In this document: positions 7,754 through 33,709 of the stretch, in pieces
Layout of the letters: each line of letters opens with the position of its first letter
Numbering within the stretch: the stretch's first letter is position 1
The notes under the pieces: model-generated
Database searches by the model: none
The model's input: only the letters and a program-made list of their open reading frames with translations
What the model was told of the DNA's origin: nothing
Origin: a virus
Length of the DNA stretch: 36,081 nt
Reading direction: 5' to 3' (one strand)
IMG/VR virus record: IMGVR_UViG_3300021090_000071
Span: 1 to 36,081 of that record
Translations under genes and position numbers: made by a program

Positions 7754-8164
7754 GTGAGCGAATACCACAAGATCGAAACACTCTACGAGCGCGACGACGC
7801 CACGCATCGGCTTAAACAGCCTCTCGTGTTCAAGAACCGCGTGTATGGAATCGTTAATCCGTGGGTCTTCACCGAGAAGATCGACGGCACAAATATCCGC
7901 TGCGCTTGGCATCTCGGGAAGGTGACGTTCGGTGGCAAAACGGACGCCGCACAAATTCACGCCGATCTCGTCAGATGGCTCTACGAGCACGTCACGCCCG
8001 AAACATGCCGCGTGGCGTTTGCAAACCACGCCGAAGAGCATCCGGTGGTTCTCTACGGCGAAGGGTACGGGGCGGGCATTCAGAAGGGTGGTGGCGATTA
8101 CTCGCCCGAGAAACGCCTAATTCTTTTCGACGTGCTCATCGCGGATGAGGCGGAACGTGGCTAG
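7754..8164 (+). CDS. RNA ligase (Rnl2-type), N-terminal part up to an in-frame TAG
   Basis: It starts at GTG 7754 after AAGGAGAAACC. Residues 37-44 are FTEKIDGT, the KxDG nucleotidyltransferase motif whose Lys takes the AMP; VLYGEGYGAG and LILFDVL follow as in RNA_ligase (PF09414) proteins. These enzymes seal RNA ends using ATP. A TAG at 8162-8164 ends the frame after 136 residues, but homologous sequence continues in the same frame to 8392. The family usually has two Trp at this point (WWL), so TGG to TAG is the simplest explanation. Truncated here, it lacks the late motifs. Confidence 0.85.
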   Translation: MSEYHKIETLYERDDATHRLKQPLVFKNRVYGIVNPWVFTEKIDGTNIRCAWHLGKVTFGGKTDAAQIHADLVRWLYEHVTPETCRVAFANHAEEHPVVLYGEGYGAGIQKGGGDYSPEKRLILFDVLIADEAERG

Positions 8165-8395: not shown

Positions 8396-8866
8396 ATGAG
8401 TAACATTTTCGTACACTCGCCACACCTTCCGGTTTTCGAATACGATGGAGCTTTCAAGTGTTTTGACTGCGGTGCGACATGGGGAGCGCTGCCGGATCAT
8501 CCGGAGATGCCTGCAACCTGTGTATCTCGTCGTGGTAAATCTCTCAGACTGGATTTCGAGTGTTTCAAAAGCGACGTAGAGGCGGGTCGAGCGGAGCATG
8601 TCGCTTTACCGGTTGTCCTTCGTGACGACAAGGATCGAACGAGAGCGGACATCGTTGCCGAAGCGATGGAGGAAGTCAGAAAAACCCATCTGGCATACGA
8701 TGTCGCCAAGGAAAAAGCCAACGCGGCGGTGAGTAATGTGAACGAAGCGCTTCTCAGCGCAAACCGGGCGCAGGTTGCGCTCGATACGGCCCTTACAGAA
8801 TTGAAAAACACTGCCCCCTACGGATCGAAGTGGAACACACCGAGAAAAGGAGAATCAGAATCATGA
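8396..8866 (+). CDS. Hypothetical protein with zinc knuckle and coiled coil
   Basis: A 156-residue protein. The N-terminus has FKCFDCGATWGALPDHPEMP with two further cysteines nearby (TCVSRR, FECF), a probable zinc site. Residues 80-145 are a long helix (RADIVAEAMEEVRKTHLAYD and onward), probably coiled coil. Its stop overlaps the Tas-like start (ATGA at 8863), so the two are translationally coupled. It could act with the array system, but no function is recognised. Confidence 0.7.
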   Translation: MSNIFVHSPHLPVFEYDGAFKCFDCGATWGALPDHPEMPATCVSRRGKSLRLDFECFKSDVEAGRAEHVALPVVLRDDKDRTRADIVAEAMEEVRKTHLAYDVAKEKANAAVSNVNEALLSANRAQVALDTALTELKNTAPYGSKWNTPRKGESES

Positions 8867-9744
8867 CCACAACCCTCGAAGAACCCGAAACCACTCACGT
8901 CGAAGACGATCTTGAAGCACCGCTCATTCCGCTCGCCAAGCTGAGGAAGGACCTCCAGAAGGCAGCGGAGACCCTTTCCCCGCACGAGGCCCGGTATCTG
9001 GTCAGCGTGTACTACCAGCTACAGGACCTCCGGATCATCCTGAACAATCAGGAGAAATCCAACATCAAGCGGGAGCGCCCGCACGCCGCGGTGAGCTTCT
9101 TCCTCAAGCAACTCAAGGCGGTCGAGCGTCAGGTGGCGCAGGTGCTCGACACCTACAGCGAGTCGAAGGAACTAGGGAGGTGGGTACGGCAGATTGTCGG
9201 CATTGGGCCGATCATTTCCGCGGGGCTGCTCGCGCACATCGACCTGAACACCATGCCGCACGTCTCGAACCTCTGGTCTTTCGCCGGGCTCAATCCCACG
9301 ATGAAGTGGGAGAAGGGACAGAAACGTCCTTACAACGAGAACCTCAAGGTCCTTTGCGCCGGGAAAATCGGGCAGAGCTTTGTCTACAACCAGAACCGTC
9401 CGAACGATATCTACGGGAAGGTGTACGCCAAGCGGAAGGAACTGGAGGTTCAGCGGAACGAAGCGGGGAATAACGCGGAGAAAGCTGCCGAGATTCTGCA
9501 AAAGAAACGGTTTGACAAGAAGACCGTCGCCTACCAGAACTACATCGCCGGGAAATTTCCGCCTGCGCACATCCACGCCCGAGCGCGCCGGTATGCCGTG
9601 AAGCTTTTCCTGAGCCACTATTGGGCCACAGGACGGGCCATGGCTGGACTTCCTGTGACGGAGCCGTACGCGATTGCCGTGTTGGGTCACTCTCCCGAGA
9701 GCAAGATCAATCCGCCGTATCCACCGAAGCCTGCTACCTCGTGA
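8863..9744 (+). CDS. Tas-like protein (IS110 C-terminal / Nop-like domain, no nuclease); TasA-like
   Basis: A 293-residue protein from ATG 8863 after AAAAGGAG. Residues 20-105 are helical with a coiled coil. Residues 106-175 match the Tnp_20 (IS110/IS116) C-terminal domain: VGIGPIISAGLLAHI at 112-126, WSFAGLNPT at 138-146, KGQKRPYNENLK at 151-162. A basic helix ARRYAVKLFLSHYW follows at 241-254. The IS110 N-terminal DEDD (RuvC-like) domain is absent, there is no HNH, and no insertion-sequence ends are seen. Its stop codon lies inside the first repeat of a dual-spacer array. Tas proteins of TIGR systems use a Nop-like domain related to IS110 to hold a dual-spacer guide RNA; the version without nuclease is TasA. 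Automatic annotation would probably say transposase. Confidence 0.82.
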   Translation: MTTTLEEPETTHVEDDLEAPLIPLAKLRKDLQKAAETLSPHEARYLVSVYYQLQDLRIILNNQEKSNIKRERPHAAVSFFLKQLKAVERQVAQVLDTYSESKELGRWVRQIVGIGPIISAGLLAHIDLNTMPHVSNLWSFAGLNPTMKWEKGQKRPYNENLKVLCAGKIGQSFVYNQNRPNDIYGKVYAKRKELEVQRNEAGNNAEKAAEILQKKRFDKKTVAYQNYIAGKFPPAHIHARARRYAVKLFLSHYWATGRAMAGLPVTEPYAIAVLGHSPESKINPPYPPKPATS

Positions 9745-10628
9745 AGTCCAAGCTGGATGTGTGAGCCAACTAAAGTGTGGAGTCCATCTATTGTGTGCGA
9801 ACCATTATTTCCGTATTTCCGTGTCACCCCACCCGGTGAGTGTGAGCCAAAATCGAGATGAATTCCATCGTCCACGGCGCGAGCCATTAGGCGTGAGTCA
9901 GGAAGCAGATGACAACCAAACTCTGCGTACGGGCCAGTTTTACCGGTGAAGACCACGACTCGTGTGCGAATCAGGATAATCTGTGGAACACCAAAATCTC
10001 GTGTATGGGTCAATACAAAGGTGAAACCCGAACCAGTCGTGCGAACCAACCGATTAGTGTAGTCCAGCTTTAGTGGTGTGAACCGTAGTAGTTGTGGAAA
10101 CCTGAGCCGGGAGTGTGAGTCAGAAGCGTCGTGAAGTCCATTGGAATACGTACGAGCCAACGTCTTCTTTGAATTCCACCCATCTGGTGCGAATCAGATT
10201 CCCTGTGGAGCCCCGTATAAAGGGTATGAGCCAGCCCACCGATGAACTCCAAACCTCCGGCGCGAGTTAGCGAACGATGTGAAACCCGAGATCCATGTAC
10301 GAGCCACCTTAAGCGTGAAATCCAAATATGGAGCGCGAGTCAACGTGATGGTGGATTCCAAATATTTAGCGCGAGTCAACAGCATTAAGTGAACTCCAAA
10401 CCGTACGTGCGAGTCCAGAGGGTTGAATGAAAACCACAGCCGTGCGAGTCAGGTATCAGGGCGCAATCCAGCGATCAAGTACGAGTCCAGCGAATTTGTG
10501 AACTCCATCAGGTAAGTGCGAGTCCAAAACTATCGTGAAATCCAGCCAACGAGTGCGGGTCACCAAACTTGTGAAAACCACTCAACAAGTACGAGCCACC
10601 AAAACTGAAAACCACAAAAGACGAGCAT
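9741..10628 (+). repeat. TIGR-like dual-spacer repeat array 1
   Basis: About 48 ten-base units alternate between type A (consensus GTGAANTCCA, also GTGAAAACCA) and type B (GTGCGAGYCA or GTACGAGCCA). Starts are mostly 18 or 19 bases apart, e.g. A 9741, B 9759, A 9777, B 9795, and A 10315, B 10333, A 10351, B 10369. Spacers are about 8-9 bases and all different, so a full A-B period is 36-37 bases, as in TIGR arrays. One pair near 9813-9830 is decayed. Two B units are adjacent at 9877 and 9891. The array begins inside the Tas-like stop codon and ends just before the ribosome site of the next gene, so it is probably co-transcribed with it. No protein frame survives. Confidence 0.85.
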
Positions 10629-10646
10629 ACCTTTTAGGAGGACTGG

Positions 10647-10898
10647 ATGAAGTGGAAAGAGTGGAAGAACAGTTCGGGCTGGCTGGCCTTTAAGATATCT
10701 TTTTTCTACGATACGCTGGCAGCGCTTGGATTTTTCTTGGCCTTCAAGATGCTGATTCCTGCCTTACCGTGGTGGAGGTGTCTCCTCGGGGCGTTTTTTT
10801 CGGTGTGGGCGTCAAACATAGCCATGCGCAGTCGGTTCGAGATGACCCTCATCGAGCACGTGAACAAAGCGCTAGACAAGTATCTGAGCAAGCCCTAA
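10647..10898 (+). CDS. Small membrane protein between the two arrays
   Basis: An 83-residue protein starting at ATG 10647 after TTTAGGAGGACTGG. Two hydrophobic segments (residues about 17-37 and 40-57, FYDTLAALGFFLAFKMLIPA and CLLGAFFSVWASNIAM) suggest two transmembrane helices, followed by a short charged tail. No family recognised. It sits directly after array 1. Confidence 0.75.
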   Translation: MKWKEWKNSSGWLAFKISFFYDTLAALGFFLAFKMLIPALPWWRCLLGAFFSVWASNIAMRSRFEMTLIEHVNKALDKYLSKP

Positions 10899-10916
10899 AA
10901 TGGGGACGGAGGTTCA

Positions 10917-11423
10917 ATGATGTCTTTGGTATTCGTGGACTGTGAGGCTTACGGGGGTGCTCCAAGCGTGGGGCGTCTGACGGAATTCGGGGCCGTGACG
11001 TATCCGAAGAAGGTTACCTTTCATGGGGTGCTGCTGTCTACGCGTCCCTCGCTGGCGAATCCGGCAGTCCCCGAGCGCGTCTCGGATATGTCCGAAGACC
11101 ACTACCACGAACTCGCATCGGGCGTGTTCTTTAGCTTCGATGCGTGGCTCCGGGAAAATACGACCGGGCGTCCGGTCTTCGTTTCGGACAATCCGGCCTT
11201 CGACTGGCAGTGGATCAACGACCTGTTCTGGAGGACCCTCGGGCGTAATCCCTTCGGTCACTCGGCCCGCAGGCTCGGAGACTTCTACGCCGGACTCGTA
11301 AACGATTTCTACAAGACGCAGAAGTGGAAGGATTTTCGAGTCACGAAGCATACGCACCACCCTGTCGATGACGCCATGGGAAATCTGGAAGCGTTCGAAC
11401 GTCTTCTCAAGGGGGAACGATGA
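10917..11423 (+). CDS. 3'-5' exonuclease, DEDDh type
   Basis: A 168-residue protein with the DEDDh fold motifs. Exo I is VFVDCEAYG with Asp and Glu at residues 8 and 10, followed by a conserved TEFGAVTY strand. Exo II is FVSDNPAFDWQWIN with Asp near residue 98. Exo III is HTHHPVDDAMGN with His and Asp near residues 146 and 151. Family members such as DnaQ epsilon, RNase T and oligoribonuclease remove 3' nucleotides using two metal ions. ATG 10917 is preceded by ACGGAGG, and ATG 10920 follows at once. Lying between the arrays, it could trim guide RNAs or serve the Tas-like protein; this is inference. Confidence 0.82.
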   Translation: MMSLVFVDCEAYGGAPSVGRLTEFGAVTYPKKVTFHGVLLSTRPSLANPAVPERVSDMSEDHYHELASGVFFSFDAWLRENTTGRPVFVSDNPAFDWQWINDLFWRTLGRNPFGHSARRLGDFYAGLVNDFYKTQKWKDFRVTKHTHHPVDDAMGNLEAFERLLKGER

Positions 11424-11470
11424 AAATACTCCGTCAAGTTCTCAAAAAGGTGGGGTTGAAAATAGAGTCT
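11420..11470 (+). CDS. Very short ORF (16 codons), possibly a linking peptide
   Basis: ATG 11420 overlaps the exonuclease TGA (ATGA) and gives MKILRQVLKKVGLKIES before a TAA. The start is well placed for coupling, but the product is tiny and basic. It may only carry translation towards the next start at 11474. Confidence 0.3.
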
Positions 11471-11473
11471 TAA

Positions 11474-11695
11474 ATGATCCCCGACGAGTGGTACGACCGG
11501 TTCGAATGTCTGGCGAGGGAACTGGCGTGTGAGAGAGTGTATCTGGAGTCGCACAGCTATACTCACATAACCCGGTTTGACACCGCCGCGGTTCCCGGTT
11601 ACGTGTATGCGCCGTGGGTTCCTTTCTACGTTAACGGTAGAGAAGCGAAAGAAGCGTGGTCTGTGTTGTTTAGTATTGCGGGTTGTACGGCCTGA
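11474..11695 (+). CDS. Hypothetical protein before array 2
   Basis: A 73-residue product: MIPDEWYDRFECLARELACE, then RVYLESHSYTHITRFD and PGYVYAPWVPFYVNG. It has no motif I recognise. The final codons overlap the first, imperfect unit of array 2 (about 11690). The ribosome site is weak, so the start is less certain. Confidence 0.6.
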   Translation: MIPDEWYDRFECLARELACERVYLESHSYTHITRFDTAAVPGYVYAPWVPFYVNGREAKEAWSVLFSIAGCTA

Positions 11696-12147
11696 ACCAT
11701 CCAATGTGTGAAAACCATAGACCCGGTGTGAGCCATCCGGAGAGTGAAGTCCAAAATCAATGAGCGAAATTCCTGACAACCTGTACGAGCGATTCATGAA
11801 ATATTTGATAAGCTCGCACGAGTCATTCAAAAGGTGAAACCCACGCTTCAAGTACGAGTCATTCAAACGGTGAAATCCATTCGTTCAGTATGAGCCAACC
11901 CCTATCGTGAATCTCCCTTGTACGAACCGAGGTAGCCAGTGTACTCCTGTCAAGGCGCGTGAGACAATATACAGGTGAAACCCACAGGAGTTTGTTCGAG
12001 CCCATCAGGACGTAAGCCAAATCCGAAGCGAAATCCCGGCTGTGTGTGCGAGTCAGGTCAATAGCGAACCCCAACTCATTTGTACGAGCCAACGGTTAAT
12101 GTGAAAAACCATCTGTCGAGTGCGAGCCATTAGTCGGGTGAAGCCCA
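11690..12147 (+). repeat. TIGR-like dual-spacer repeat array 2
   Basis: About 25 units share the array 1 consensus. Type A occurs at 11708, 11744, 11834, 11870, 11975, 12101 and 12138, type B at 11726, 11816, 11852, 11888, 12046, 12082 and 12120. Spacing is mostly 18-19 bases with unrelated spacers. Units at 11764, 11796, 11920 and 12010 are degenerate or out of phase, so this array is more decayed than the first. It begins within the stop codon of the preceding gene and ends about 24 bases before the tRNA. The shared repeats imply one Tas protein could use both arrays. Confidence 0.8.
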
Positions 12148-12171
12148 ACGGTGTCGATGCGTATTTTTTTC

Positions 12172-12247
12172 CGGGGTGTAGCTCAGGGGGTAGAGCGCCT
12201 GCCTTGGGAGCAGGAAGTCGGCGGTTCGAGTCCGCCCACCCCGACCA
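12172..12247 (+). tRNA. tRNA-Pro (anticodon UGG)
   Basis: All four stems pair: acceptor CGGGGTG with CACCCCG, D stem GCTC with GAGC, anticodon stem CCTGC with GCAGG around loop CTTGGGA (anticodon TGG, then G37 as usual for Pro), and T stem GGCGG with CCGCC around TTCGAGT. The 3' CCA is encoded (12245-12247). It follows array 2 after a run of seven T, so RNase P cleavage here would also define the 3' end of an array transcript. Confidence 0.95.
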
Positions 12248-12378
12248 CTTTTCCTTACGTGTGTAATACGGAGATTCGTTTTCCCTGACAAGGCCATTTT
12301 TTCCTCCTCCACAATTTACCTTCTCTTCGGTCGTGTATGAAAATGTATAGGGACCAAACTATCCTTTCGGAGTTTTCA
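12248..12378. other. Gap after the tRNA
   Basis: This holds no supported gene. There is a T-rich stretch (CATTTTTTCC near 12297) without a convincing stem, and the motif ACTATCC at 12358-12364, which recurs before other genes in the window. Confidence 0.5.
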
Positions 12379-19057: not shown

Positions 19058-20023
19058 ATGACGGAAATTAGACCCGGTAACCGAAGGGTCTCCGAGGCTG
19101 AGCAGATTGTGGGGGACCTCTGCCGGGCTGACGACGGGGAATTCTCCTCCTGTGGGAGGGGGTCCTCCAGCCGGTCTACGGCTCGTTCTGCGCCTCAGAG
19201 CGCCCCTTCCAAGGAAAAGACACCCAAGGAGACGGGCTCTAAGGAGAAGGTCACTCAAGCCATCGCCTACACCCTGCCTGCGGACTGGACCAAGATCACC
19301 CTCGACGATCTTGAAACCGCAACCAAGAAGTGTGCGTCAGAGGGGGGCAAGGAAGACCTCTGTATCCTGAACCCGCCTGTCTGCAAGGGAAACTACGGGG
19401 TGGATCGGAAGGACATGCCTCAGTTCCCGAAGGACAAGGCCGAGGAACTCGTGCAGGCACTCCGGGACAAGAAGGTGCCGGTGGACGAGGTTGAGGTTCC
19501 GGTGAAGGATCTCAAGGCCACGCAGGACGAGATCAACGCGAAAAAGGTCATCGGGATGGCGAAAGCCATGAAGGGCGGAACCTTTCATCCCGGTGGCGCC
19601 GTGTATGTCAGCAAGGACGGTTACGTCCTCGATGGGCACCACAGGTGGGCGGCTGCGTGGTTGCTCGACCGTGACTCGAAAATCAAGGTTGTGCGCCTCG
19701 GGATGGACATGGATCATCTGCTTGCTTTTGCCGACGAATACTCCGCCCCGAAAAAAGGCTTCGATGAAGCGGAGCGTATCGTTAGGGGATTTCTTGAGGT
19801 TGAACTGAAGCCACGTGTTACTTTTGACGGGAAAACTTATGTCGTCCGTTCTCGGACATTGGAAATTCCCGACTTCGCCTCTATGGACCGCATTGCTGTC
19901 TTACAGTGGTTGTCAAGAAATACGTATGCAACCGGGTACAGTAAAGCTCCTAATCCGTTGACTGGAATAGGCGGGGCGATCAAGTTGAAGGTGGAGTCTG
20001 TTGTTGAACGACTTCTCTTGTGA
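19058..20023 (+). CDS. ParB-like nuclease-fold protein with tags
   Basis: A 321-residue protein. The N-terminus has a tag-like RVSEAEQIVGDLCRADDGEF and then a low-complexity Ser/Lys linker. Residues about 150-235 resemble the ParB/sulfiredoxin fold: VEVPVKDLKATQDEINAKKV, then AVYVSKDGYVLDGHHRWAAA with the DGHHRW motif. The tag AERIVRGFLEVEL follows, and the protein ends in VESVVERLLL. ParB-like domains bind nucleotides or cut DNA in some families. The role here is unknown; the tags suggest delivery with the virion. The ribosome site for ATG 19058 is weak. Confidence 0.72.
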   Translation: MTEIRPGNRRVSEAEQIVGDLCRADDGEFSSCGRGSSSRSTARSAPQSAPSKEKTPKETGSKEKVTQAIAYTLPADWTKITLDDLETATKKCASEGGKEDLCILNPPVCKGNYGVDRKDMPQFPKDKAEELVQALRDKKVPVDEVEVPVKDLKATQDEINAKKVIGMAKAMKGGTFHPGGAVYVSKDGYVLDGHHRWAAAWLLDRDSKIKVVRLGMDMDHLLAFADEYSAPKKGFDEAERIVRGFLEVELKPRVTFDGKTYVVRSRTLEIPDFASMDRIAVLQWLSRNTYATGYSKAPNPLTGIGGAIKLKVESVVERLLL

Positions 20024-23865: not shown

Positions 23866-26352
23866 ATGACTTACGTCTCTCCGGGCGTGTACACGACGAT
23901 CCTAGATTACAGCCTCTACGTTCCGACTCTTTCGGCGACGATTCTTGGAGTCGTCGGGCTCGCTTCCAAGGGGCCGGTCAACGAGGCGACCTACATCTCG
24001 AATGTTCTTACGTTCGTGACGGCGTTCGGTAATCCAAACCCGAATTATTTTGCTCCCTACGCGGCGCTTCAGTTTCTCCGCTTCGGGCGGCAGATGTTTT
24101 TCGTGCGGGTCGCTGGTCCTACTGCGGCTAATTCCAGTGGTATTCTGCCCGAAAAAACCACGGCTGGAACGGTCACATCCTCGGCGCCGGGTCCGTATTT
24201 CATTCAAAGCGCGGATAATCACGTTCTGCGTGTGAAGGTGGACGCAGGTTCGTTCGTTGTCGTCACTCTGACTAAGGGTGTTCGGACGGCTTCTCAGGTT
24301 GCCGCTGAAATCACCGCTGCTCCGCTCACCGGAGCCACCGTGACAGTCAACACGAATCAGACCATCACGATTACCTCTAACACGATTGGCGCTTCCAGCG
24401 CTATCACCATCGACACGACGGGAAATGGTTCGACGGCGAACGTTCCGCTCGGCTTCACGGCTGCTACCTACAGTGGTGCGGCTGCTACCGCCGGGACGAT
24501 CACTGGCACAGGGGTCAATGAGCCCTATGTGATTTCTACAGGCAGCAATGACGGGTTGACGGTCATCATCGACGGTACGTCCTACGCTGTCACTTTGACC
24601 GCAGGATCGCGTACGGCCTCTCAGATCGCTTCGGACATCAACGCGATCATCACCTCGAACGGGACGGCTTCCTCGCAGGTTGTGGGCGGAAATACGGTGG
24701 TCCGTATCGTGTCGGCTGCGACTGGCACGTCATCCACCGTGCAGATCCTCGGAAGCTCCACTGCGGCCTCTACGCTCGGCTTTGACGCGGCGGTCCATAT
24801 TGGAGTTGCGGCCACGAAGGGCAAGACGACGGGCACGGTTGCAGGACCCTACGTCCTTGGTGCCAACAACACCCTGAAGGTTCGCTTCAACGCCGGGCTG
24901 CTCCGTACAGTGGCTCTCACGGTCGGGTCTCAGACGGCCTCTCAGATCGTCAATTCCATCAATATCGTAATCGGCTCTGCCGGGTATAACGAAGGGCTGG
25001 CCTCGGTAACCTCGGACGGCAAGGTTTCTCTCGCCACCCTCGTGGCGGGCTCGACCGGTTCCGTGCAGGTGGATGCCACTGGAAATGCGCAGTACGGGCT
25101 CTCGCTGGCCACCTCGCAGTTCGCAGGCACAGGCACCGTGGGGCAGACTTCAGTCACGGTTACGGCGCTCACGAAGGGTACGCATGGAAATAGTCTTAAG
25201 GTGGTCATCGGTCCCGCGGCCAACGCTTCAGCCACAGCGTTCAGCCTGCGGGTTTACATGGGAGATGGCTTCGCGGAGGTATTCGACAACCTTCTTGTGA
25301 CACCTTCAACAGACGTGAATTTCGTGGAGACGGCCATCAATGAGGTTTCCACTCTGATTACGGTGGACCAGAATGGCTCTTCCTCGGTCATCCCCGAGGC
25401 TGGTACGACAACCCTTACGGGTGGAGACGATGGAGTTGCCTCGGTGACGGATGCCGACTATATCGGCACGACCACTTCCTTGGGGAAAACCGGACTCCAG
25501 ATTTTCGCCAACGCGGAGGATTTCGACCTGAACTTGCTGGCCGTGCCGGGAGTTTCCTCGGCAGCAGTCATCAACGAGATGCTGCTGCTCTGTTCGACAC
25601 GCGGTGACTGCATGTCCATCGTGGACCCGCCGCTCGGGCTCTCGACGCAGCAGGTCGTGGACTGGCACAACGGCGCTGGCGCCTACTCGGATCATCAGGC
25701 TTTCAATACGTTCTATGGCGCTCTGTATTGGCCATGGCTCCAGATTTACGACGCCACGAACAAAATGAAGGTTTGGGTTCCGCCTTCGGGTCTTGTCGGT
25801 GGAGTGTATGCGTTCACGGACTACAACACCTTCACGTGGATCGCACCTGCCGGTCTCAATCGTGGTCACTTGCTCCAGCCGTTGAAAATCGAGCACAACC
25901 CGGATCTTGGAGAGCGGGATTACCTCTACGGCAATCAGAACGCGGTCAACCCGATTGTGAATTTCCGCAAGGACGGAATCACGGTCTTCGGTCAGCGTTC
26001 GCTTCAGAGAAAGCCAAGCGCTCTTGACCGGGTGAATGTCGTGCGTCTTGTGCTTTATCTGCGGAAGGCTATTGCCACAGCGGTCAAGTACCTTGTGTTC
26101 GAGCCGAACGATCCGATTACGTGGGCGGCTTTCGTGAATCTCGTGGAACCTTACATGGAGATGGTCAAGCAGAATCGGGGCGTATACGACTACAAGGTCA
26201 TCTGCGACAAGGATACGAACCCGCCTGATGCCATTGACAGGAACGAAATGCACGGGGTCGTGGCGATGAAACCGGTGAAGGCCGCTGAATTCCTCGAAGT
26301 GAAATTCGTGCTCACGGCCACGGGCGCCCGGTTTGAGGATCTCGTTTTTTGA
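23866..26352 (+). CDS. Tail sheath protein with three inserted repeat domains
   Basis: An 828-residue protein starting at ATG 23866 after GAGGAG. The N-terminus TYVSPGVYTTILDYSLYVPT and the C-terminal part (RKPSALDRVNVVRLVLYLRK, FEPNDPITWAAFVNLVEPYM, and a final AAEFLEVKFVLTATGARFED) are typical of contractile-tail sheath proteins, which form the contracting outer tube. Residues about 100-422 are an insertion of three ~105-residue copies, each with a strand pair, a TASQI-type helix (TASQVAAEITAA, TASQIASDINAI, TASQIVNSINIV) and Ala/Thr/Gly-rich strands. These copies resemble the flagellin-IN type motif and would project from the sheath surface. Confidence 0.92.
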   Translation: MTYVSPGVYTTILDYSLYVPTLSATILGVVGLASKGPVNEATYISNVLTFVTAFGNPNPNYFAPYAALQFLRFGRQMFFVRVAGPTAANSSGILPEKTTAGTVTSSAPGPYFIQSADNHVLRVKVDAGSFVVVTLTKGVRTASQVAAEITAAPLTGATVTVNTNQTITITSNTIGASSAITIDTTGNGSTANVPLGFTAATYSGAAATAGTITGTGVNEPYVISTGSNDGLTVIIDGTSYAVTLTAGSRTASQIASDINAIITSNGTASSQVVGGNTVVRIVSAATGTSSTVQILGSSTAASTLGFDAAVHIGVAATKGKTTGTVAGPYVLGANNTLKVRFNAGLLRTVALTVGSQTASQIVNSINIVIGSAGYNEGLASVTSDGKVSLATLVAGSTGSVQVDATGNAQYGLSLATSQFAGTGTVGQTSVTVTALTKGTHGNSLKVVIGPAANASATAFSLRVYMGDGFAEVFDNLLVTPSTDVNFVETAINEVSTLITVDQNGSSSVIPEAGTTTLTGGDDGVASVTDADYIGTTTSLGKTGLQIFANAEDFDLNLLAVPGVSSAAVINEMLLLCSTRGDCMSIVDPPLGLSTQQVVDWHNGAGAYSDHQAFNTFYGALYWPWLQIYDATNKMKVWVPPSGLVGGVYAFTDYNTFTWIAPAGLNRGHLLQPLKIEHNPDLGERDYLYGNQNAVNPIVNFRKDGITVFGQRSLQRKPSALDRVNVVRLVLYLRKAIATAVKYLVFEPNDPITWAAFVNLVEPYMEMVKQNRGVYDYKVICDKDTNPPDAIDRNEMHGVVAMKPVKAAEFLEVKFVLTATGARFEDLVF

Positions 26353-26398
26353 GTCTAGACTTTCTAGCTTTGGTATACTATCCTTCTAGGAGGGTAGT

Positions 26399-26905
26399 AT
26401 GGCTGAATGGAGATCGTTGTTCGGGTTTGAAGGGTATTACATGATATCGAACGAAGGACAAGTCATGCGAGTAGCGCCGGGAAGGCACGGAGGAACACGT
26501 CCCGGTTACGTTCTGCGTTCTCGTGTTGACCGTAAAGGGTATCATTCTGTGATGCCATGTGTGGATGGAAAAACAAAGGTGGTATCGCTTCATCGGGCTG
26601 TACTGCTTGCTTTCAAGGGGGAACCGCCGATTGTTGGCATGGAGGCCAATCACGAGGACGGCAATAAAGCAAATTGTCATCTCAATAATTTGAGTTGGGT
26701 GACAAATAGCGAAAACAAGAAACACGCGATGCGCACTGGTTTGCGTAAACGGCTTTTTTCTAAGGAAGACATTACGCAAATCAAGGCATGGTACGCATCG
26801 GGTAGGTTTTCGCAACAGGCCATTGCGGATTTCTATGGTGTAAGTCAGCGTCACATTTCCTTTATTGTGCGTGGAGATATCTACACTGAGGACACGTTTT
26901 CATGA
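26399..26905 (+). CDS. HNH homing endonuclease (NUMOD4-HNH-HTH)
   Basis: A 168-residue protein from ATG 26399 after CTAGGAGGG. Residues 1-25 are a NUMOD4-like start (MAEWRSLFGFEGYYMISNEG). Residues 57-100 carry the HNH core VVSLHRAVLLAFKG, then MEANHEDGNKANCHLNNLSW. The end is a DNA-binding helix-turn-helix (ITQIKAWYASGRFSQQAIAD ... GVSQRHISFI). It is a selfish free-standing endonuclease that cuts a site in related phages without it. The upstream gap contains TATACT and ACTATCC, so it may have its own promoter. Confidence 0.88.
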   Translation: MAEWRSLFGFEGYYMISNEGQVMRVAPGRHGGTRPGYVLRSRVDRKGYHSVMPCVDGKTKVVSLHRAVLLAFKGEPPIVGMEANHEDGNKANCHLNNLSWVTNSENKKHAMRTGLRKRLFSKEDITQIKAWYASGRFSQQAIADFYGVSQRHISFIVRGDIYTEDTFS

Positions 26906-27291
26906 AGGAAATTACGGCTGAGCAGGTCGTGCGCGGACTGTTGGAGGACGATGAAACGACGTACGTTCACCTGCTGAAGACTCGTGGTGGTTCCGTATGT
27001 GGTGCCACTTCTGGTGAATCATACGCAGACATCAATTGGGTGACCTGCCCGAAGTGCCTGAAGATTTATGACGCAGAAGACGATGGTACGAGTGAATCGT
27101 TGCAGGAAGCGCGGGCAGGGCGGCAGGTCACGATTCTGATTGAGACCGATAACGAAGCTTTCACTGACGAACCGAGCTTGGAGTTGGCTCGAATTCTTCA
27201 GTCTCTCGCGTCCGGTAATTTGAACCCCGGAGATTCCATCAACATTCGGGACATCAATGGAAACACTGTCGGCAGCTTCAGGTGGACGTAA
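26902..27291 (+). CDS. LLE-tagged hypothetical protein
   Basis: A 129-residue protein beginning MKEITAEQVVRGLLEDDETT, an N-terminal tag. It then has a Cys site (GGSVCGATSGES ... VTCPKCLKIYD), and a C-terminal domain with RQVTILIETDNEAFTDEPSL and NIRDINGNTVGSFRW. The start overlaps the HNH stop (ATGA), so the homing gene is translationally joined to the operon. Function unknown. Confidence 0.7.
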   Translation: MKEITAEQVVRGLLEDDETTYVHLLKTRGGSVCGATSGESYADINWVTCPKCLKIYDAEDDGTSESLQEARAGRQVTILIETDNEAFTDEPSLELARILQSLASGNLNPGDSINIRDINGNTVGSFRWT

Positions 27292-27294
27292 ATC

Positions 27295-27819
27295 GTGGCC
27301 GAAGCACTGGCGTGTGGGCATCCTAATTGTCTAGCGTGGGCTAGAGAAGGTGCCATTCCGTGTACCGAGTGCGGGAGACCCGTAGACCATTCTCCGATGT
27401 GTCTGGAAAAAGATTCCGGTATCAAGTGCCGGGACTGCGCACGTGGAGATACGCCGACTAGCTGTGACGCTGATTATCGTAGTCAGGAAGTTGAGTCTAT
27501 CGTTGAAGCGTTTTTCACGGAGGATGTAGCCGACACGATTTATCAGCAACTTCGTGCCTTGAGCGGCGGAGGCGGGCTCGGCGGGCTGTCAGCGTGGGGT
27601 GCCCGAGAATTCATAAAGTCGTCTGACTCATTGATGTTCCGTGTCGGTAAGCGGGGTAAAATCACCATCAAGTATGACGAGGGAATGGACGAATATTCGG
27701 TCACTCTCCATAAGCTCGGCAATGGGGGCAGTGTCACGAAGTTGAAGTCGTTGGACATGGTTTACTTCGATCAGCTTGTGGATGTGATCGGTGAATGGGT
27801 AAGTGAGTTTAACCCATGA
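27295..27819 (+). CDS. Zinc-binding protein with internal tag
   Basis: A 174-residue protein from GTG 27295. The zinc part is CGHPNCLAW, CTECGRPVDHSPMCLEK and KCRDCARGD; then the tag variant QEVESIVEAFFTEDVADT near residues 62-79. A C-terminal domain (MFRVGKRGKITIKYDEGMDE, then YSVTLHKLG) follows. The order zinc, tag, domain repeats that of other genes here. Confidence 0.68.
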   Translation: MAEALACGHPNCLAWAREGAIPCTECGRPVDHSPMCLEKDSGIKCRDCARGDTPTSCDADYRSQEVESIVEAFFTEDVADTIYQQLRALSGGGGLGGLSAWGAREFIKSSDSLMFRVGKRGKITIKYDEGMDEYSVTLHKLGNGGSVTKLKSLDMVYFDQLVDVIGEWVSEFNP

Positions 27820-28193
27820 CCCTCGCTCAGTGGTTGGAAAAATCTCCCGTCGTCGGTAAGGTGTACGATAAGGGTGTGTACACGATCCCTGACCAGCTAC
27901 CGGACGACCTTCGCAGGGAACTCTGGAATCTGTCCGATTACCGGGTGTCGTCCGTAACTGGTGGGTCCATTTGGTTGACGAAAAAGAAAACCACCGAATC
28001 AAAGCCAAAAATGACATACGAGTTGGCCATGGCTGCTGCGAAGGATGAAGCCAACCGCCATATGAGGGCGGGTGGGCGCACGAAGTGGGATGAGTCGGAT
28101 TACAACGAAATGGCCAGAGTCTTCAATGAACTGTGGCCGGAAGGGTCGGAGACTGAGAGTATTGTTGAAGCACTCCTTGGGTGTGACCTGTGA
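27816..28193 (+). CDS. Hypothetical protein with C-terminal tag
   Basis: A 125-residue protein. The N-terminal half is mixed (VVGKVYDKGVYTIPDQLPDD and onward). The middle has a helix KMTYELAMAAAKDEANRHMR. The last residues TESIVEALLGCDL match the tag placed at the C-terminus. ATGA overlap at the start. No family recognised. Confidence 0.68.
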   Translation: MTLAQWLEKSPVVGKVYDKGVYTIPDQLPDDLRRELWNLSDYRVSSVTGGSIWLTKKKTTESKPKMTYELAMAAAKDEANRHMRAGGRTKWDESDYNEMARVFNELWPEGSETESIVEALLGCDL

Positions 28194-28396
28194 CTCGCGC
28201 TGAACTCGAAAACCTCGCCTTTAACAAGACGCCGGGAGACTACAAAGCTTTAGACGCAGACGGCGCCATGCGTCTGAATTACGTGAACCCGAAATCTGGT
28301 AACGCTGAATCGTGGCCGATCAGCGCTCTTCCTGTTGAGCACCTTCTCCGCCTTGCCGGGCTTTCGAAGGATACCTTCATCGGGGGGAAAAAATGA
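28190..28396 (+). CDS. Small hypothetical protein
   Basis: A 68-residue product from GTG 28190, overlapping the previous stop: TRAELENLAFNKTPGDYKAL, then a beta hairpin with MRLNYVNPKSGNAESWPIS, and a C-terminal helix. No tag and no known family. Confidence 0.65.
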   Translation: MTRAELENLAFNKTPGDYKALDADGAMRLNYVNPKSGNAESWPISALPVEHLLRLAGLSKDTFIGGKK

Positions 28397-28866
28397 GCGA
28401 GATGGTCGAGTCGTTTGAAAGCACTGATGAGATGCCGCGCATAAATAAAGTAGAGCGGCGGAAACGTAAAATTGCACGTCTTTTCCATCGTCTTCTGATC
28501 GGGCCAACCGACCTTAGTGAAGTGGTCGTCGGTTATTTTTCTACTGGTTACGCTACGCTTGGTATCTGGCATGGTACACGGGCTGCACCGTTTTTCCTGA
28601 CGGTTGACCGTATGCCGGGACCGTATATTTTTTTGCCCTTTATACTTGTTATTCTTGGTGGTTGCATTCTCGTTGCGTGGGCGAAGGAAGGTATTACCGC
28701 TCGAAAGGTGTGTGCGTGGGTGTCTGTTCCGGCGTTTGCGCTATGTACGTTTCTTTCTATCATCACGACTGGAGCGGGTGCGGCACAGATTATTTTTCCG
28801 GCGCTTACAGCACTTTCACTTAGGACTGTGCTTGGTCTAAATGGCCACGAGAAGAAGAGTGAATGA
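28393..28866 (+). CDS. Multi-spanning membrane protein
   Basis: A 157-residue protein. A basic N-terminal part (RRKRKIARLFHRL) is followed by about four hydrophobic segments: the stretch near residues 45-60, YIFLPFILVILGGCILVAWA near 77-96, VCAWVSVPAFALCTFLSIIT near 104-124, and a last segment near 128-148. The arrangement of a charged tail then four helices does not match a known family. It could belong to the lysis or entry set downstream. Confidence 0.7.
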   Translation: MSEMVESFESTDEMPRINKVERRKRKIARLFHRLLIGPTDLSEVVVGYFSTGYATLGIWHGTRAAPFFLTVDRMPGPYIFLPFILVILGGCILVAWAKEGITARKVCAWVSVPAFALCTFLSIITTGAGAAQIIFPALTALSLRTVLGLNGHEKKSE

Positions 28867-29218
28867 TCCAATTCTTCTCACAATTGGCGGCTCCGTCATC
28901 GTCGCAGCGACGGCGCTTGCCACAAAGCTACTGGAAAATCGTTTCGGTTCCAGTGTGCGCAGAATTGACCAAGGTGTTGCCGATATGGCTATCCTTCGGT
29001 CGGATAATAAGGACCTTGACGAGAAGGTCGATATTTGGAAAGAAAAATACTGGAAGCTTTATGAGGAGTGTGCGCACGAGCGGATTGAGAACGCGAACGT
29101 GTTAATGGATGTATCGCGGCTCCAGCGTGAAGTTGATCGGCTTGAAAAAGAACAGAGTCAACAAATATGTCCATTCAGCGGGTGTCCGCTTGATCGAGAG
29201 CAAAAGCCGGAGAAGTGA
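28841..29218 (+). CDS. Membrane-anchored coiled-coil protein (spanin-like architecture)
   Basis: A 125-residue protein from ATG 28841, overlapping the previous gene by 26 bases; GTG 28859 is an alternative. It has one N-terminal membrane helix (ILLTIGGSVIVAATALATKL), then a long coiled coil (DLDEKVDIWKEKYWKLYEEC and onward to RLQREVDRLEKEQSQ). A single anchor followed by a coiled coil is the layout of inner-membrane spanins, so a lysis role is possible but not shown. Confidence 0.68.
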   Translation: MATRRRVNDPILLTIGGSVIVAATALATKLLENRFGSSVRRIDQGVADMAILRSDNKDLDEKVDIWKEKYWKLYEECAHERIENANVLMDVSRLQREVDRLEKEQSQQICPFSGCPLDREQKPEK

Positions 29219-29267
29219 CTATCCCTACGGCCCCCACTACGAACTGTAGAAAGGAAAGGGAGGACCC

Positions 29268-29735
29268 ATGAGCTTCTTCGACGAACTGAAAGTCCTGATC
29301 GCAAAGTATGAAAGTGGCCCCGCGCCAACGCCGGTCTCTTCAGAACCACCGTTCCTGTATCCGGCGAGTCCGCGTTTCGGGTCGAAAAACGAGCAGAAAG
29401 ACATCGGCCCGTGCAATCCGCTCGACCTGCCGGAAGTCAAGGCACGGCTGGCGGAAGGGTACACGTACGCTGGAAACAGGGCGAAGTGGGGCGAGGGACT
29501 TGACAAGGCGGACGCTGAGCTTCGGCGTCTCTGGTCGATGTCCACGCCTGAGTACCAGACGAGCCGTTATCGCCGTTGCGACCCAACCTTCGCCTGCGCC
29601 GGGATCAAGGGTGGTCTGATCGAAATGCCGGGGGCGAATCCGATGTCGCCTCAGAATCTAGACCAGTACGAGGGGTTCACTCTCGAATCGTTCCTTGCCA
29701 ATGTTCAGACCGGTGGTGGACCGAGCGGCGGCTAA
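29268..29735 (+). CDS. Hypothetical protein
   Basis: A 155-residue protein from ATG 29268 after GGGAGGACCC. It has MSFFDELKVLIAKYESGPAP, a Pro-rich stretch, then DLPEVKARLAEGYTYAGNRA, and a segment with SRYRRCDPTFACAGIKGGLI containing two Cys. No known family. GACTATCC lies in the 49-base gap before it. Confidence 0.68.
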   Translation: MSFFDELKVLIAKYESGPAPTPVSSEPPFLYPASPRFGSKNEQKDIGPCNPLDLPEVKARLAEGYTYAGNRAKWGEGLDKADAELRRLWSMSTPEYQTSRYRRCDPTFACAGIKGGLIEMPGANPMSPQNLDQYEGFTLESFLANVQTGGGPSGG

Positions 29736-29744
29736 GATTCGACG

Positions 29745-30278
29745 GTGAGACGAATGTTGATTCTTGTGGGGCGACGGTTAATCCCTGTCGCCCTGCTTTT
29801 CTTTTCAAATATGATACTCGCTCAACCACAGCCCTTGCCGACCCGCAGGCCAACGGTTCCTCCTCCGCCTACGGCTGCCCCTCCGACTCCGGCGCCTACG
29901 TGGACGCCGACCATGGTCCCGATACGGACACCGACTGCGGTCTCGACTGCTACTCCTGTCGGACCGACACCTGTTCCTACGTTGACACCGACTGTCACAC
30001 CAACATTTCCAGTGTCGTTCCCGACTCCTTCTGGTACGCCTGTGCTCAGCGTTCGTGCGCAGCTACGGTTCAAGGCGAGCGCAACCGGTGATCCGGCGAT
30101 GTTTTACTTGGACTATCGAGTGGGTGGCGGGGGATGGAAAGCGGTTCCAATCAGCGGTGAAATATTGGAGTGGATCGGGCCAGAGGACGTGTTGGAGCTT
30201 CGAAAAACCGACGCGACAACTACATCTATCCGTCGTTTCCGTCTCGCGGTTGGCGCGATCCTCGTGCCGGAACGTTGA
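29745..30278 (+). CDS. Secreted or anchored protein with Thr/Pro-rich stalk
   Basis: A 177-residue protein; GTG 29745 or ATG 29754 can start it. The N-terminus RRLIPVALLFFSNMILAQPQ is a signal peptide with a probable cleavage after ILA. Residues about 30-95 are a Pro/Thr-rich stalk (repeats of TPT and PTP type). The C-terminal 75 residues are a beta domain (VLSVRAQLRFKASATGDPAM, GGGWKAVP). Such stalked, exported proteins are uncommon in phage tail modules; host-surface display or decoy functions are possible. Confidence 0.72.
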   Translation: MRRMLILVGRRLIPVALLFFSNMILAQPQPLPTRRPTVPPPPTAAPPTPAPTWTPTMVPIRTPTAVSTATPVGPTPVPTLTPTVTPTFPVSFPTPSGTPVLSVRAQLRFKASATGDPAMFYLDYRVGGGGWKAVPISGEILEWIGPEDVLELRKTDATTTSIRRFRLAVGAILVPER

Positions 30279-30292
30279 ATGTGTAACCCCAT

Positions 30293-30337
30293 AGGGCCGC
30301 AGTACGGACTTCAACGTGCCAGCGGCCCTACTTTTTT
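30293..30337 (+). terminator. Rho-independent terminator
   Basis: AGGGCCGC (30293-30300) pairs with GCGGCCCT (30322-30329) across a 21-base loop, followed by AC and six T. It lies between the stalk protein and the muramidase, so the muramidase, membrane protein and following genes may be a separate transcript. Confidence 0.7.
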
Positions 30338-30348
30338 GAAAGTCTAGA

Positions 30349-30900
30349 ATGTATCTTCCTGCGCCTGTCATTGCTGCTCTTCCCGCCGTCGCGGCACGTC
30401 ACGAGCTAGATGTATACCTGCTCGCTGCTTTCGTGATGCAGGAGTCTGGTGGTGAAACATCAGCATGGAATCCGGAACCGAAATATCGTTACCTGTGGGA
30501 TGTTCGCGATTGGAAGCCTTTTCGGACGTTGACCGCTGATGAAAACGCATCCGAAATTCCACCGGCTGATTTCCATAAACTTGGTGGGCAGCTAGATCAG
30601 GAGTGGTGGGGGCAGCAGGCGAGTTGGGGGCTCATGCAGGTGATGGGAGCCGTGGCGAGAGAGCACGGATTTCGTGAAATCTTTTTCACCAAGTTGTGCA
30701 ACATGGATGTCGGGCTAGCATATGGAGCGCGTCATCTTGCTGGTCTTTTTGCCCGTGGTTTCGATATGCAGGACGCCATCTCGGCCTACAATGCCGGACA
30801 TCCGACGCACGAAAATTACTACAAGTACACCAGCCCGGTTCTTCAATGGGTAGATAAACTCAGGAAAGAGAGGGCTTTTTCCACAGGGGGCACAGCATGA
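30349..30900 (+). CDS. SLT-domain lytic transglycosylase / muramidase (endolysin candidate)
   Basis: A 183-residue protein. It carries the SLT/lysozyme-like motifs: AFVMQESGGETSAWN with the catalytic Glu of QESGG near residue 28, then ASWGLMQVMGAVAREH (GLMQ), and DAISAYNAGHP (AYNAG). The family cleaves the glycan strands of peptidoglycan. No signal peptide is present, and a two-helix membrane protein follows, which suits a lysis cassette. A virion-associated role is also possible. Confidence 0.87.
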   Translation: MYLPAPVIAALPAVAARHELDVYLLAAFVMQESGGETSAWNPEPKYRYLWDVRDWKPFRTLTADENASEIPPADFHKLGGQLDQEWWGQQASWGLMQVMGAVAREHGFREIFFTKLCNMDVGLAYGARHLAGLFARGFDMQDAISAYNAGHPTHENYYKYTSPVLQWVDKLRKERAFSTGGTA

Positions 30901-31280
30901 AAATAATCGCGTGGTTCGCCGCCTTATCCGGCAAGCTCTCGGGATACAGGACGCTGTTTTTTCTTGCGGTGTCTATCATCCTGAAGCTTTTGGCGATCAC
31001 GGGTGTTCTTCATGGCACGAGTGTGGATGCGAACGAGGCTACGGATAAGGTCATTTTGATCGTGTCTGGTCTTTGTGATTTTGCGGCGTTCATCTACCGG
31101 ACTATTTCTACCAAGCCGGGACCAATGGCCCCGCCGTATGTAGGGCCGAATCGCCGTGTGGAAATCAGTGGAGACGCCCCGACGACGGTCAGCATTGTGC
31201 CTGAGCATTCGGTTGTTACGACAACGCCTCCTGATATTGTGGCTGGCACGCAGGTGTTGGTGGAAAAAAAGGAAGAGTAA
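30897..31280 (+). CDS. Holin-like membrane protein
   Basis: A 127-residue protein with two hydrophobic helices (TLFFLAVSIILKLLAITGVL near residues 19-38 and KVILIVSGLCDFAAFIY near 51-67), then a hydrophilic tail rich in Thr/Val/Pro. It overlaps the muramidase by four bases. Position and layout suit a holin, which would let the muramidase reach the cell wall. Confidence 0.65.
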   Translation: MKIIAWFAALSGKLSGYRTLFFLAVSIILKLLAITGVLHGTSVDANEATDKVILIVSGLCDFAAFIYRTISTKPGPMAPPYVGPNRRVEISGDAPTTVSIVPEHSVVTTTPPDIVAGTQVLVEKKEE

Positions 31281-31281
31281 C

Positions 31282-33051
31282 TTGCCGACCAAAGCGCCTT
31301 CGGCTGACAAGATCACCGTCTACCGCACAACATATCCTGATGTGGCGGGTGGAGATCGTGTTGGAGCCGTGGCCCGCATTGACGGTGCTCTTGTCCCAAT
31401 AATCGCCGAAAATATCGAGCACGTGCGGCGTCTGGCATCTGGAGCCGATTTCTCCCCGTTCATTAACCGAATTCAGGCGCTTGAGGTGGTGGCCTCTACC
31501 GCGGAACAGAAAGCCGCGCTCACGGGATTTCCAACCGCCCCGTCCGCTGACAACCCATTCGTTACGAAAGATGGTCTTGGGACGCTCCGTCTTCCTGAAG
31601 AGGGGCAAGGCATCCTGCCGGGTGTCGGTGATTCCACCATCAGTGAATTCGTTGAAGCTCCGGTGGTGACTGCTGACGGTAGTGCTTCCGTATCTCTGAC
31701 GCGAAGCTGGTATGTTTTTCAGGGAGTGTCATACCGTGTCACGGAGACGCACGCGCTTGAACTCAATCAACTGGACGGGGATGGTCAGGGGCTTGCGGCA
31801 GGCGAGGAATACACAGCGCGTCTCGTGCAATCGAAAGGTGACGGGATCACTGAAATCGGACCAGTGGTCGTTAAGGGAGCAAGGGCGGTAATAGGAAGCT
31901 CGGTGCTTCCGGATCTTCCGGCGCTCTCTCTGTCCATCGGGCAGGTGACGGTCTACTACCGTGTGGGCGGGACTTCGATTATTTCTCAGTCAGATGTCTT
32001 ACAGACTGCTGTGAATGGACGTGGAAAACCGACCGTAGGCGTTGGGCTCAGTGTCATTATCGGAACGTTGCGCGCACGTCTCGCTGGAGCACTGGTTGCC
32101 ATCTCAACTGTGACCGAGGTTCCTGTAACGGCGAACTTCAACAACCGGATTTGGCTCAAACCGGATGGTACGTTTGTCGCAGTAGCAGACGATTCTCCGT
32201 ATGTAAACCCGCCCGTGTCCGGTGCGCTATTGATCTGCGATGCAGTCGGCGGACCTAGCTCGGTCACTTCAATCCAAGACGACCGTATTTTTTGGGAGCC
32301 GAATGCTCAAGTCATCGTATTTGGGGTGGTTGGGGCTGAAAGCCGCCTGATGAAGGTTGAAAAAAGATGGCGTGAGCGGCTATATATTCCAAGTGGTGTC
32401 ACAACAATTTATACGAGTGCCGATCTAGGGTTGGGTGCCAACGTACGTATTTCAGCAGTTGCAACCAATTGTGTCGTGGTTCCTGCCGGACCTGTTAATT
32501 TTGATGTTGGGGTTGACGGTGATACGCAGAGATTCGATGCCGCTGTAGGGCTTAGCGTGAGTGGAATCAGCGTTGGGATGAAAGACTTTTCAAGGCTCTA
32601 TCTCTGGCCTTCTCCTCAGATCCTCATTACGTTCAACGCACCTACTACAGATGCAAACGGAATAATTGATGTTACAGTGTTTTTCGAGGAAGTAAATTAT
32701 GACGCGGACGACCGTATTCGGGCTGCTATTCCTTATAGCTACAACATAGACCGGGTTATTGCATACGTAGGCACTCCAGCAAGTCCCATTGGTGGCGGGC
32801 AAACGATTTTCAATCTCCTCCTCACTAGAAATCAGATGAACATTTTCCCGGATAGCGGGCGTCCGACAATTCCGGCAGGGGAAAAGTTTGACATGAACGC
32901 CTACCCGCTTATAACGCTTGGGAAGGCGGGGGATTCGTTGCTCTACCACATGCCGGAAGCGTCAGGGGGCTACAGTTCTGCTTCTGGAGGTGGTAACGGG
33001 GCTAGATCGCTATATGTTGCTCTCGTAATCTACCCGACTCAGGTTGCATAA
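31282..33051 (+). CDS. Large tail-fibre or baseplate-like protein
   Basis: From TTG 31282, after GGAAGAG, this gives 589 residues; an in-frame stretch upstream overlaps the holin-like gene and is ignored. The N-terminus PTKAPSADKITVYRTTYPDV contains a KNPFVTK-like piece further on (ADNPFVTKDGLGTL), which recurs in tail fibre proteins. Most of the rest is beta-rich with many Val/Thr/Gly strands, as in fibres or virion surface proteins. No enzymatic motif seen. Confidence 0.6.
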   Translation: MPTKAPSADKITVYRTTYPDVAGGDRVGAVARIDGALVPIIAENIEHVRRLASGADFSPFINRIQALEVVASTAEQKAALTGFPTAPSADNPFVTKDGLGTLRLPEEGQGILPGVGDSTISEFVEAPVVTADGSASVSLTRSWYVFQGVSYRVTETHALELNQLDGDGQGLAAGEEYTARLVQSKGDGITEIGPVVVKGARAVIGSSVLPDLPALSLSIGQVTVYYRVGGTSIISQSDVLQTAVNGRGKPTVGVGLSVIIGTLRARLAGALVAISTVTEVPVTANFNNRIWLKPDGTFVAVADDSPYVNPPVSGALLICDAVGGPSSVTSIQDDRIFWEPNAQVIVFGVVGAESRLMKVEKRWRERLYIPSGVTTIYTSADLGLGANVRISAVATNCVVVPAGPVNFDVGVDGDTQRFDAAVGLSVSGISVGMKDFSRLYLWPSPQILITFNAPTTDANGIIDVTVFFEEVNYDADDRIRAAIPYSYNIDRVIAYVGTPASPIGGGQTIFNLLLTRNQMNIFPDSGRPTIPAGEKFDMNAYPLITLGKAGDSLLYHMPEASGGYSSASGGGNGARSLYVALVIYPTQVA

Positions 33052-33096
33052 CCCACCGGAGACTATCTTCTCGACGGCAGGTTTGGAGGTACTTAG

Positions 33097-33606
33097 ATGG
33101 CCAGAATGAGCGCGGCTCACCTAGCTCCACAGGGCGGAGGATTCGAGCCTCAGCGTAAATACGATTTCGAAATCAACCTGTTCGGAGTGCCGGGGGCGGA
33201 GCTTATCAAGCTCGCCTGTGTGTCCGCTGGCGTGCCGGATGGCACGAACGAAGTCATCAACCTTCCATACCTGAATGAAGTCATCAAGGTGGCGGGTCAG
33301 GCAAAGTGGGCGAGCGTTCCGCTGGTCGTGCGTGACTTTGTGGACCAGCCTGTTTATTCTGCGTTGATGGCGTGGAGAAAGCTCGTGCAGGACCCTGCGA
33401 CTGGTAACACCGGGCTCGCCTCTACCTACAAGAAACAGGGGGAGCTTTCTTTTATCGGACCGGACGGTGCCGCGGAAAAGAAATTCAAGATGATTGGTAT
33501 TTGGCCTTCAAGCGTCAAGGATGAGGGTGTGAGTTACGCGGAAGGAACTGCTGTTCACACGATCACGATGACGTTGGAGTGCGATAAGGCGATGCCACTT
33601 TTTTGA
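33097..33606 (+). CDS. Tail tube protein
   Basis: A 169-residue protein of the T4 gp19-like fold: the N-terminal strand YDFEINLFGVPGAELIKLAC, then YLNEVIKVAGQAKWASVPLV and FVDQPVYSALMAWRKLVQDP, and the C-terminal strand AVHTITMTLECDKAMPLF. It forms the inner tube of the contractile tail. GACTATCT and GGAGG precede the start. Confidence 0.88.
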   Translation: MARMSAAHLAPQGGGFEPQRKYDFEINLFGVPGAELIKLACVSAGVPDGTNEVINLPYLNEVIKVAGQAKWASVPLVVRDFVDQPVYSALMAWRKLVQDPATGNTGLASTYKKQGELSFIGPDGAAEKKFKMIGIWPSSVKDEGVSYAEGTAVHTITMTLECDKAMPLF

Positions 33607-33610
33607 AATC

Positions 33611-33650: not shown

Positions 33651-33709
33651 CCTTCACTGCTGACCCCATGAAAAAAAGGCGAAAGCGGAGAGAAGAGAAG
33701 GAGAGAGCG

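What the first reader, a model, noticed from the sequence alone, without database searches (positions are those of the whole stretch)
11690..12147. Second, partly decayed array with the same repeat consensus, abutting a tRNA-Pro
About 25 units with the same two motifs lie 1.1 kb beyond the end of array 1. No second Tas-like gene is present, so one protein probably serves both arrays. Several units are degenerate or out of register, which suggests an older or less constrained array. The tRNA begins about 24 bases after the last unit, so RNase P could define the array 3' end.
Basis: partly seen in the sequence, partly recalled or inferred. Interest (0 to 1): 0.85.

Follow-up and report, generated by a model that had tools for sequence, protein, structure and literature searches.

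The report
Second phage TIGR guide-RNA array
A virus of bacteria carries a second block of paired mini-guide sequences, of the TIGR-Tas kind described in 2025, which very probably feeds guide RNAs to the single nuclease-less Tas protein encoded nearby; it is real, but a new example of a known system rather than a new one.

Summary
Window 11690-12161 is a dual-repeat TIGR array of about 26 half-repeats (12-13 tigRNA units). Edge repeats (GTGYGAGYCA) alternate with loop repeats (GTGAAAYCCA) at an 18-nt pitch, giving 36-nt units; truncated edges mark both ends. Its chain score is 159; the maximum in 500 dinucleotide shuffles is 24.5. The only Tas gene (8830-9744) passes NCBIfam's TIGR-Tas model (175 bits, cut-off 100), and its predicted structure matches solved TasH and TasR (Z 19-21). 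It has no nuclease domain, so it is TasA-type. A scan of viral contigs by repeat pattern alone gave 24 loci; all 20 loci then tested lie in contigs that encode a Tas. Several carry two or more arrays with one Tas, up to 22 kb apart, which supports 'one protein serves both arrays'. 'Older, decayed array' is weakly supported: motif scores equal array 1, box D is worse, and both arrays have register breaks. The tRNA-Pro lies 10 nt past the last edge; no relative shows this, so the RNase P idea is untested. Guides show no excess of matches to the phage's own sequence. In related phages the 36-nt edge-bounded units shuffle as modules (A-B linked 90%, B-next A 39%).

The parts
8830..9744 (+). tasA-type gene, 304 aa, Nop domain only (about residues 48-300); the single Tas of the record
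   Evidence: NCBIfam NF052498 TIGR_Tas_endo 175 bits, cut-off 100; phmmer to TasR 9mty 7e-16 and TasH 21kl 2e-12; model matches TasH and TasR at Z 19-21; one match in the record
9741..10629 (+). TIGR array 1: loop 9741 to loop 10605, then a 3'-truncated edge (GACGAGC, 10623-10629); about 23 units; starts inside the tas stop region; followed by the ribosome-binding site of the 83-aa ORF
   Evidence: chain score 358, shuffle maximum 31
10647..10898 (+). 83-aa ORF of unknown function between the arrays
   Evidence: no Pfam, PHROG or NCBIfam match
10917..11423 (+). DEDDh-type 3'-5' exonuclease, 168 aa, between the arrays
   Evidence: PDB 3'-5' exonuclease 7t2s 5e-6; PADLOC exonuclease model 2.5e-12; no homologue by tblastn in the TIGR-bearing loci
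11474..11695 (+). 73-aa ORF; its stop codon overlaps the first edge repeat of array 2
11690..11699 (+). array 2, 5'-truncated edge repeat GCCTGAACCA (box C kept, box D lost)
11690..12161 (+). TIGR array 2 as a whole, about 26 half-repeats, about 12-13 tigRNA units, 8-10 of them well formed
11754..11815 (+). out-of-register block in array 2 (degenerate half-repeats at 11764, 11783 and 11796)
11994..12037 (+). parity break in array 2 (edge 11994, ambiguous half-repeat 12010, loop 12028)
12158..12161 (+). 3'-truncated edge repeat (TGCG) that closes array 2, followed by T7 (12164-12170) without a G+C-rich hairpin
12172..12247 (+). tRNA-Pro (anticodon TGG), CCA encoded
   Evidence: ARAGORN; Rfam RF00005 70.8 bits

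Best explanation
Array 2 is a second TIGR array of one TIGR-TasA system. It is probably read from the same strand and possibly the same transcript as tas, array 1 and the three small genes between them. The precursor is cut within each edge repeat into 36-nt tigRNAs (half edge, spacer A, loop, spacer B, half edge), each bound by a dimer of the one Tas protein. Spacer A pairs with one strand of a DNA target and spacer B with the other, next to it. Because this Tas has no nuclease domain, it would bind and bend the target rather than cut it, and so interfere with a competing element or regulate host DNA. Shown here: the array, its alternation, pitch and truncated ends, Tas membership, and the precedent of several arrays per Tas. 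Inferred from Faure et al. 2025 (PMC12045711): transcription, processing and targeting. Unknown: the target. The tRNA-Pro could supply a 3' end through RNase P, but this is only compatible, not supported.
For: Array far above chance. Tas passes the NCBIfam TIGR-Tas cut-off and folds like TasH and TasR. The repeats alone predict Tas: 24 loci found by repeat pattern, and all 20 loci tested lie in contigs that encode a Tas. One Tas with several arrays: G001 has arrays up to 22 kb from its tas, and nine of 59 array-bearing loci of a second, Tas-based set have two or more arrays. Truncated edges at both ends of array 2, as the TIGR paper describes. In related phages A and B of one unit are inherited together (149 of 165) while B and the next A are not (57 of 146), which identifies GYGAG as the edge and the 36-nt A-loop-B block as the module. 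No excess of self-matches in the predicted target geometry.
Against: No expression or processing data. No terminator-like hairpin follows array 2. Several units have broken boxes or wrong spacing, so part of the array may be dead. In the window's edge repeats the box C/box D pair shows no covariation. No close relative covers array 2, so its conservation could not be tested.
Confidence: 0.88

Rival explanations
1. Array 2 is a decaying relic of a TIGR array: the repeats remain, but few or no units are loaded, and only array 1 is used.
For: Three register breaks in 470 bp; box D intact in 71% of half-repeats against 96% in array 1 (p = 0.006).
Against: Motif scores equal array 1 (p = 0.69); 36-nt periodicity at least as sharp; 8 of about 12 units have both spacings within range and boxes recognisable; a complete, truncated-edge start and end are kept.
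Confidence: 0.2
2. Arrays 1 and 2 were one array, split by insertion of the three-gene block 10647-11695 (including the DEDDh exonuclease).
For: Same edge and loop consensus; the flanks abut the arrays tightly; the block has no homologue in other TIGR loci.
Against: Each array has its own truncated edges, which an insertion into one array would not create; no target-site duplication or inverted repeats were seen at the block's ends.
Confidence: 0.2
3. The arrays act as RNA-targeting, snoRNA-like guides rather than DNA-targeting ones.
For: Nop domain and box C/D logic are shared with snoRNPs (PMC12045711); no DNA target could be found.
Against: TasR and TasH use DNA targets in the same architecture (PMC12045711); antisense 8-mer matches in the phage sequence do not exceed sense ones (54 against 56).
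Confidence: 0.07
4. Chance or coding-sequence periodicity, or a simple tandem repeat.
For: None found.
Against: Shuffles, controls in neighbouring coding DNA, and only a weak TRF hit in array 1 and none in array 2.
Confidence: 0.01

Closest known systems
TIGR-TasA systems (dual-repeat arrays; Faure et al. 2025, PMC12045711)
   Same: Nop-only Tas protein, alternating edge and loop repeats, 18-nt pitch and 36-nt unit, UG...CCA boxes, truncated edges at the array ends, phage host
   Different: Two arrays with three genes between them, more degenerate repeats than the nearest relatives, a tRNA instead of a terminator after array 2
SpTIGR-TasH of Salicola phage CGphi29
   Same: Phage-borne dual-repeat array directly downstream of a Tas gene; detectable Tas homology (26%)
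   Different: TasH carries an HNH nuclease; one array; different repeat sequence
IS110-family RNA-guided transposases (IS621)
   Same: Nop-like RNA-binding domain (Z 13-14)
   Different: No N-terminal RuvC/DEDD domain here, IS110 model far below cut-off (25.8 of 140 bits), guides in an array instead of a bridge RNA

Membership tests
TIGR-Tas | Tas protein with a Nop domain encoded next to the array | tested here: met
TIGR-Tas | Two alternating 8-12-nt repeats with about 9-nt spacers, 36-nt unit | tested here: met
TIGR-Tas | Box D (UG) and box C (CCA) in both repeats | tested here: met
   in the window's edges UG is UA in about a third and CCA is UCA in about 40%
TIGR-Tas | Truncated edge repeats at both array ends | tested here: met
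   11690 and 12158 for array 2
TIGR-Tas | Rho-independent terminator after the array (typical, not universal) | tested here: not met
   T7 run without a G+C-rich hairpin; nothing called at 12130-12172. A typical feature, not a defining one
TIGR-Tas | Extra edge base pair and box C/D pair supported by covariation | tested here: inconclusive
   No covariation in the window's own edges; significant in relative G001
TIGR-Tas | Array expressed and processed to 36-nt tigRNAs bound by Tas | not testable with these tools
   needs RNA sequencing
TasA subtype | No nuclease domain N-terminal to Nop | tested here: met
   Nop starts near residue 48; residues 1-32 have pLDDT below 50; no HNH or RuvC match
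IS110 transposase | N-terminal DEDD/RuvC transposase domain and full-length IS110 model match | tested here: not met
   NCBIfam IS110 25.8 bits, cut-off 140
CRISPR-Cas | 25-36-nt repeats with spacers of similar size, and cas genes | tested here: not met
   10-nt alternating repeats; the only Cas-linked match near the arrays is a weak DEDDh one (E 0.0097)

The most novel reading that the evidence does not exclude
A TIGR array uses an adjacent phage tRNA, with RNase P, in place of a terminator to set the 3' end of its precursor, and a phage-encoded DEDDh exonuclease between the arrays trims the tigRNAs.
Probability: 0.06. Interest if true: 0.75.

Novelty: new member of a known kind. Interest (0 to 1): 0.36.

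Why it matters
It adds a phage TasA locus with two arrays to a family whose targets, precursor processing and array growth are all open questions. The relatives fetched here bear on the last one: among phages whose array flanks and Tas are nearly identical, whole edge-bounded 36-nt units are reordered, gained and lost, while spacers A and B of one unit stay together. If it holds on a larger set, that says array turnover works by unit exchange at edge repeats, and gives an independent sign, from evolution alone, that the A-loop-B block is the working guide.

Tried and rejected
Self-targeting: A followed by the reverse complement of B, 0-6 bases apart, is no more frequent than three control geometries in the own loci of 83 TIGR loci or in window plus its overlapping contig. 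Cross-targeting among the TIGR loci: six exact A-rcB hits, three of them one site in homologous contigs, against 1-3 in the control classes; too few to claim. Scanning whole collections for 16-18-base targets was left out because chance matches would dominate. Close relatives of the array 2 region: none by Tas, by the neck gene or by blastn in phage records, where only the tRNA matched. The tail-sheath search found one 28.7-kb contig that is 99.97% identical over the last 10.9 kb of the window, but it lies downstream of array 2. Bacterial and archaeal genomes: no relative found with A2. PF00929 in 48 TIGR phage records: none, but the search also missed the window's own exonuclease, so it is uninformative. 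Terminal stems closing the window arrays: none. Promoters: fewer than chance.

Full report
WHAT IS THERE. The window is a 36,081-base virus record with a contractile-tail gene set (tail sheath; baseplate hub). At 11690-12161 two short motifs alternate on the + strand: GTGYGAGYCA and GTGAAAYCCA, usually 18 nt from start to start. The region scores 158.8 in a chain model, against at most 24.5 in 500 dinucleotide shuffles, and its self-identity peaks at lag 36 and lag 18 without any motif model.

SYSTEM. The alternation, 18-nt pitch, UG...CCA boxes and truncated terminal edges are those of dual-repeat TIGR arrays (PMC12045711). The protein at 8830-9744 passes the NCBIfam TIGR-Tas model (175 bits, cut-off 100; IS110 model 25.8 of 140). 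By sequence its best solved relatives are TasR 9mty and TasH 21kl, and its AlphaFold model (mean pLDDT 80.7) aligns to TasH and TasR at Z 19-21 and to IS621 at Z 13-14. The Nop domain starts near residue 48 and nothing before it looks like a nuclease, so it is TasA-type. A public viral collection scanned with the repeat pattern alone gave 24 loci, and all 20 loci then tested lie in contigs that encode a Tas homologue. Tas itself leads to over 100 relatives at 40-53% identity, and 59 of 65 non-redundant loci of that set have an array close by.

WHICH REPEAT IS THE EDGE. Array 2 begins with a 5'-truncated GYGAG repeat (11690, box D lost) and ends with a 3'-truncated one (12158); array 1 ends the same way (10623). 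In five phages with nearly identical Tas and array flanks, whole units recur in different orders. Over 23 related pairs of arrays, when spacer A matches, the spacer B of the same unit matches in 149 of 165 cases; when spacer B matches, the next spacer A matches in only 57 of 146. So the inherited module is A-loop-B, bounded by edges. Pairs of arrays share history, so these counts are not independent events. In relative G001 the edge pair (positions 4 and 7) and the loop pair (3 and 8) covary; in the window's own edges they do not.

ONE TAS FOR SEVERAL ARRAYS. The record has one Tas and an overlapping contig adds none. Precedents are common: G001 has one Tas at 44.7-45.5 kb and arrays at 44.2-49.6, 67.2-69.1 and 72.1 kb; nine of 59 array-bearing loci have two or more arrays, and six arrays lie 600 nt or more from tas.

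DECAY. Array 2 has three register faults and a lower share of intact box D (71% against 96%, p = 0.006), but its motif scores and pitch regularity match array 1 (p = 0.69; 65% and 59% exact 18-nt steps), which has faults too. 'Partly decayed' is fair for some units; 'older or less constrained' is not shown. Two neighbouring units share seven of eight bases in spacer A (TTCAAAAG, TTCAAACG), which looks like a unit duplication followed by change.

THE tRNA. A tRNA-Pro(TGG) starts 10 nt after the truncated edge. Between them is T7 without a hairpin, so no terminator is predicted. No relative has a tRNA within 300 nt of an array. RNase P at the tRNA's 5' end would indeed free the array's 3' end; that is inference from general tRNA biology.

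NEIGHBOURS. The DEDDh exonuclease between the arrays could trim guide RNAs, but no homologue of it was found in the other TIGR loci, so a dedicated role is unlikely.

TARGETS. Under the published geometry (spacer A on one strand, spacer B on the other, adjacent), the window's guides have no match with fewer than two mismatches in 54 kb of the phage's own sequence, and the number at two or three mismatches equals that of control geometries. Pooled over 83 loci the result is the same. Self-regulation by near-perfect match is therefore unlikely; other mobile elements or the host remain open.

VERDICT. A genuine second array of a known kind of system; the tRNA arrangement and the exonuclease are leads, not findings.

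Noticed in passing
L031, L007, L018, L011, L034 (arrays next to tas): Five phages with nearly identical Tas and array flanks differ in unit content and order; spacers A and B of a unit travel together, with single-base changes inside shared spacers.
   Followed up: partly
L030:8852-9101, 12135-12255: In G001 short dual-repeat arrays are enclosed by inverted repeats (12 nt perfect; 27 nt at 85%) that begin next to the outer box C and box D, like a snoRNA terminal stem; possibly a form between dual-repeat and stem-loop TIGR arrays.
   Followed up: partly
L067, L075, L086, L043, L061: In part of the relatives position 2 of both repeats is A instead of T (GAG... in place of GTG...), changed in edge and loop together.
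   Followed up: partly
window 10917-11423: DEDDh 3'-5' exonuclease gene between the two arrays, without homologues in the other TIGR loci.
   Followed up: partly
window 7754-8164: 136-aa ORF with a match to the RNA_ligase Pfam family, upstream of tas.
   Followed up: no
window 19058-20023: ORF with a weak match to a ParB-like phage family; the TIGR paper reports ParB-like genes next to some TasA loci, here it is 9 kb away.
   Followed up: no
window 25198-36081: A second public contig (28.7 kb, G021) is 99.97% identical here and extends the phage by about 17.8 kb with further tail genes and no further array.
   Followed up: yes
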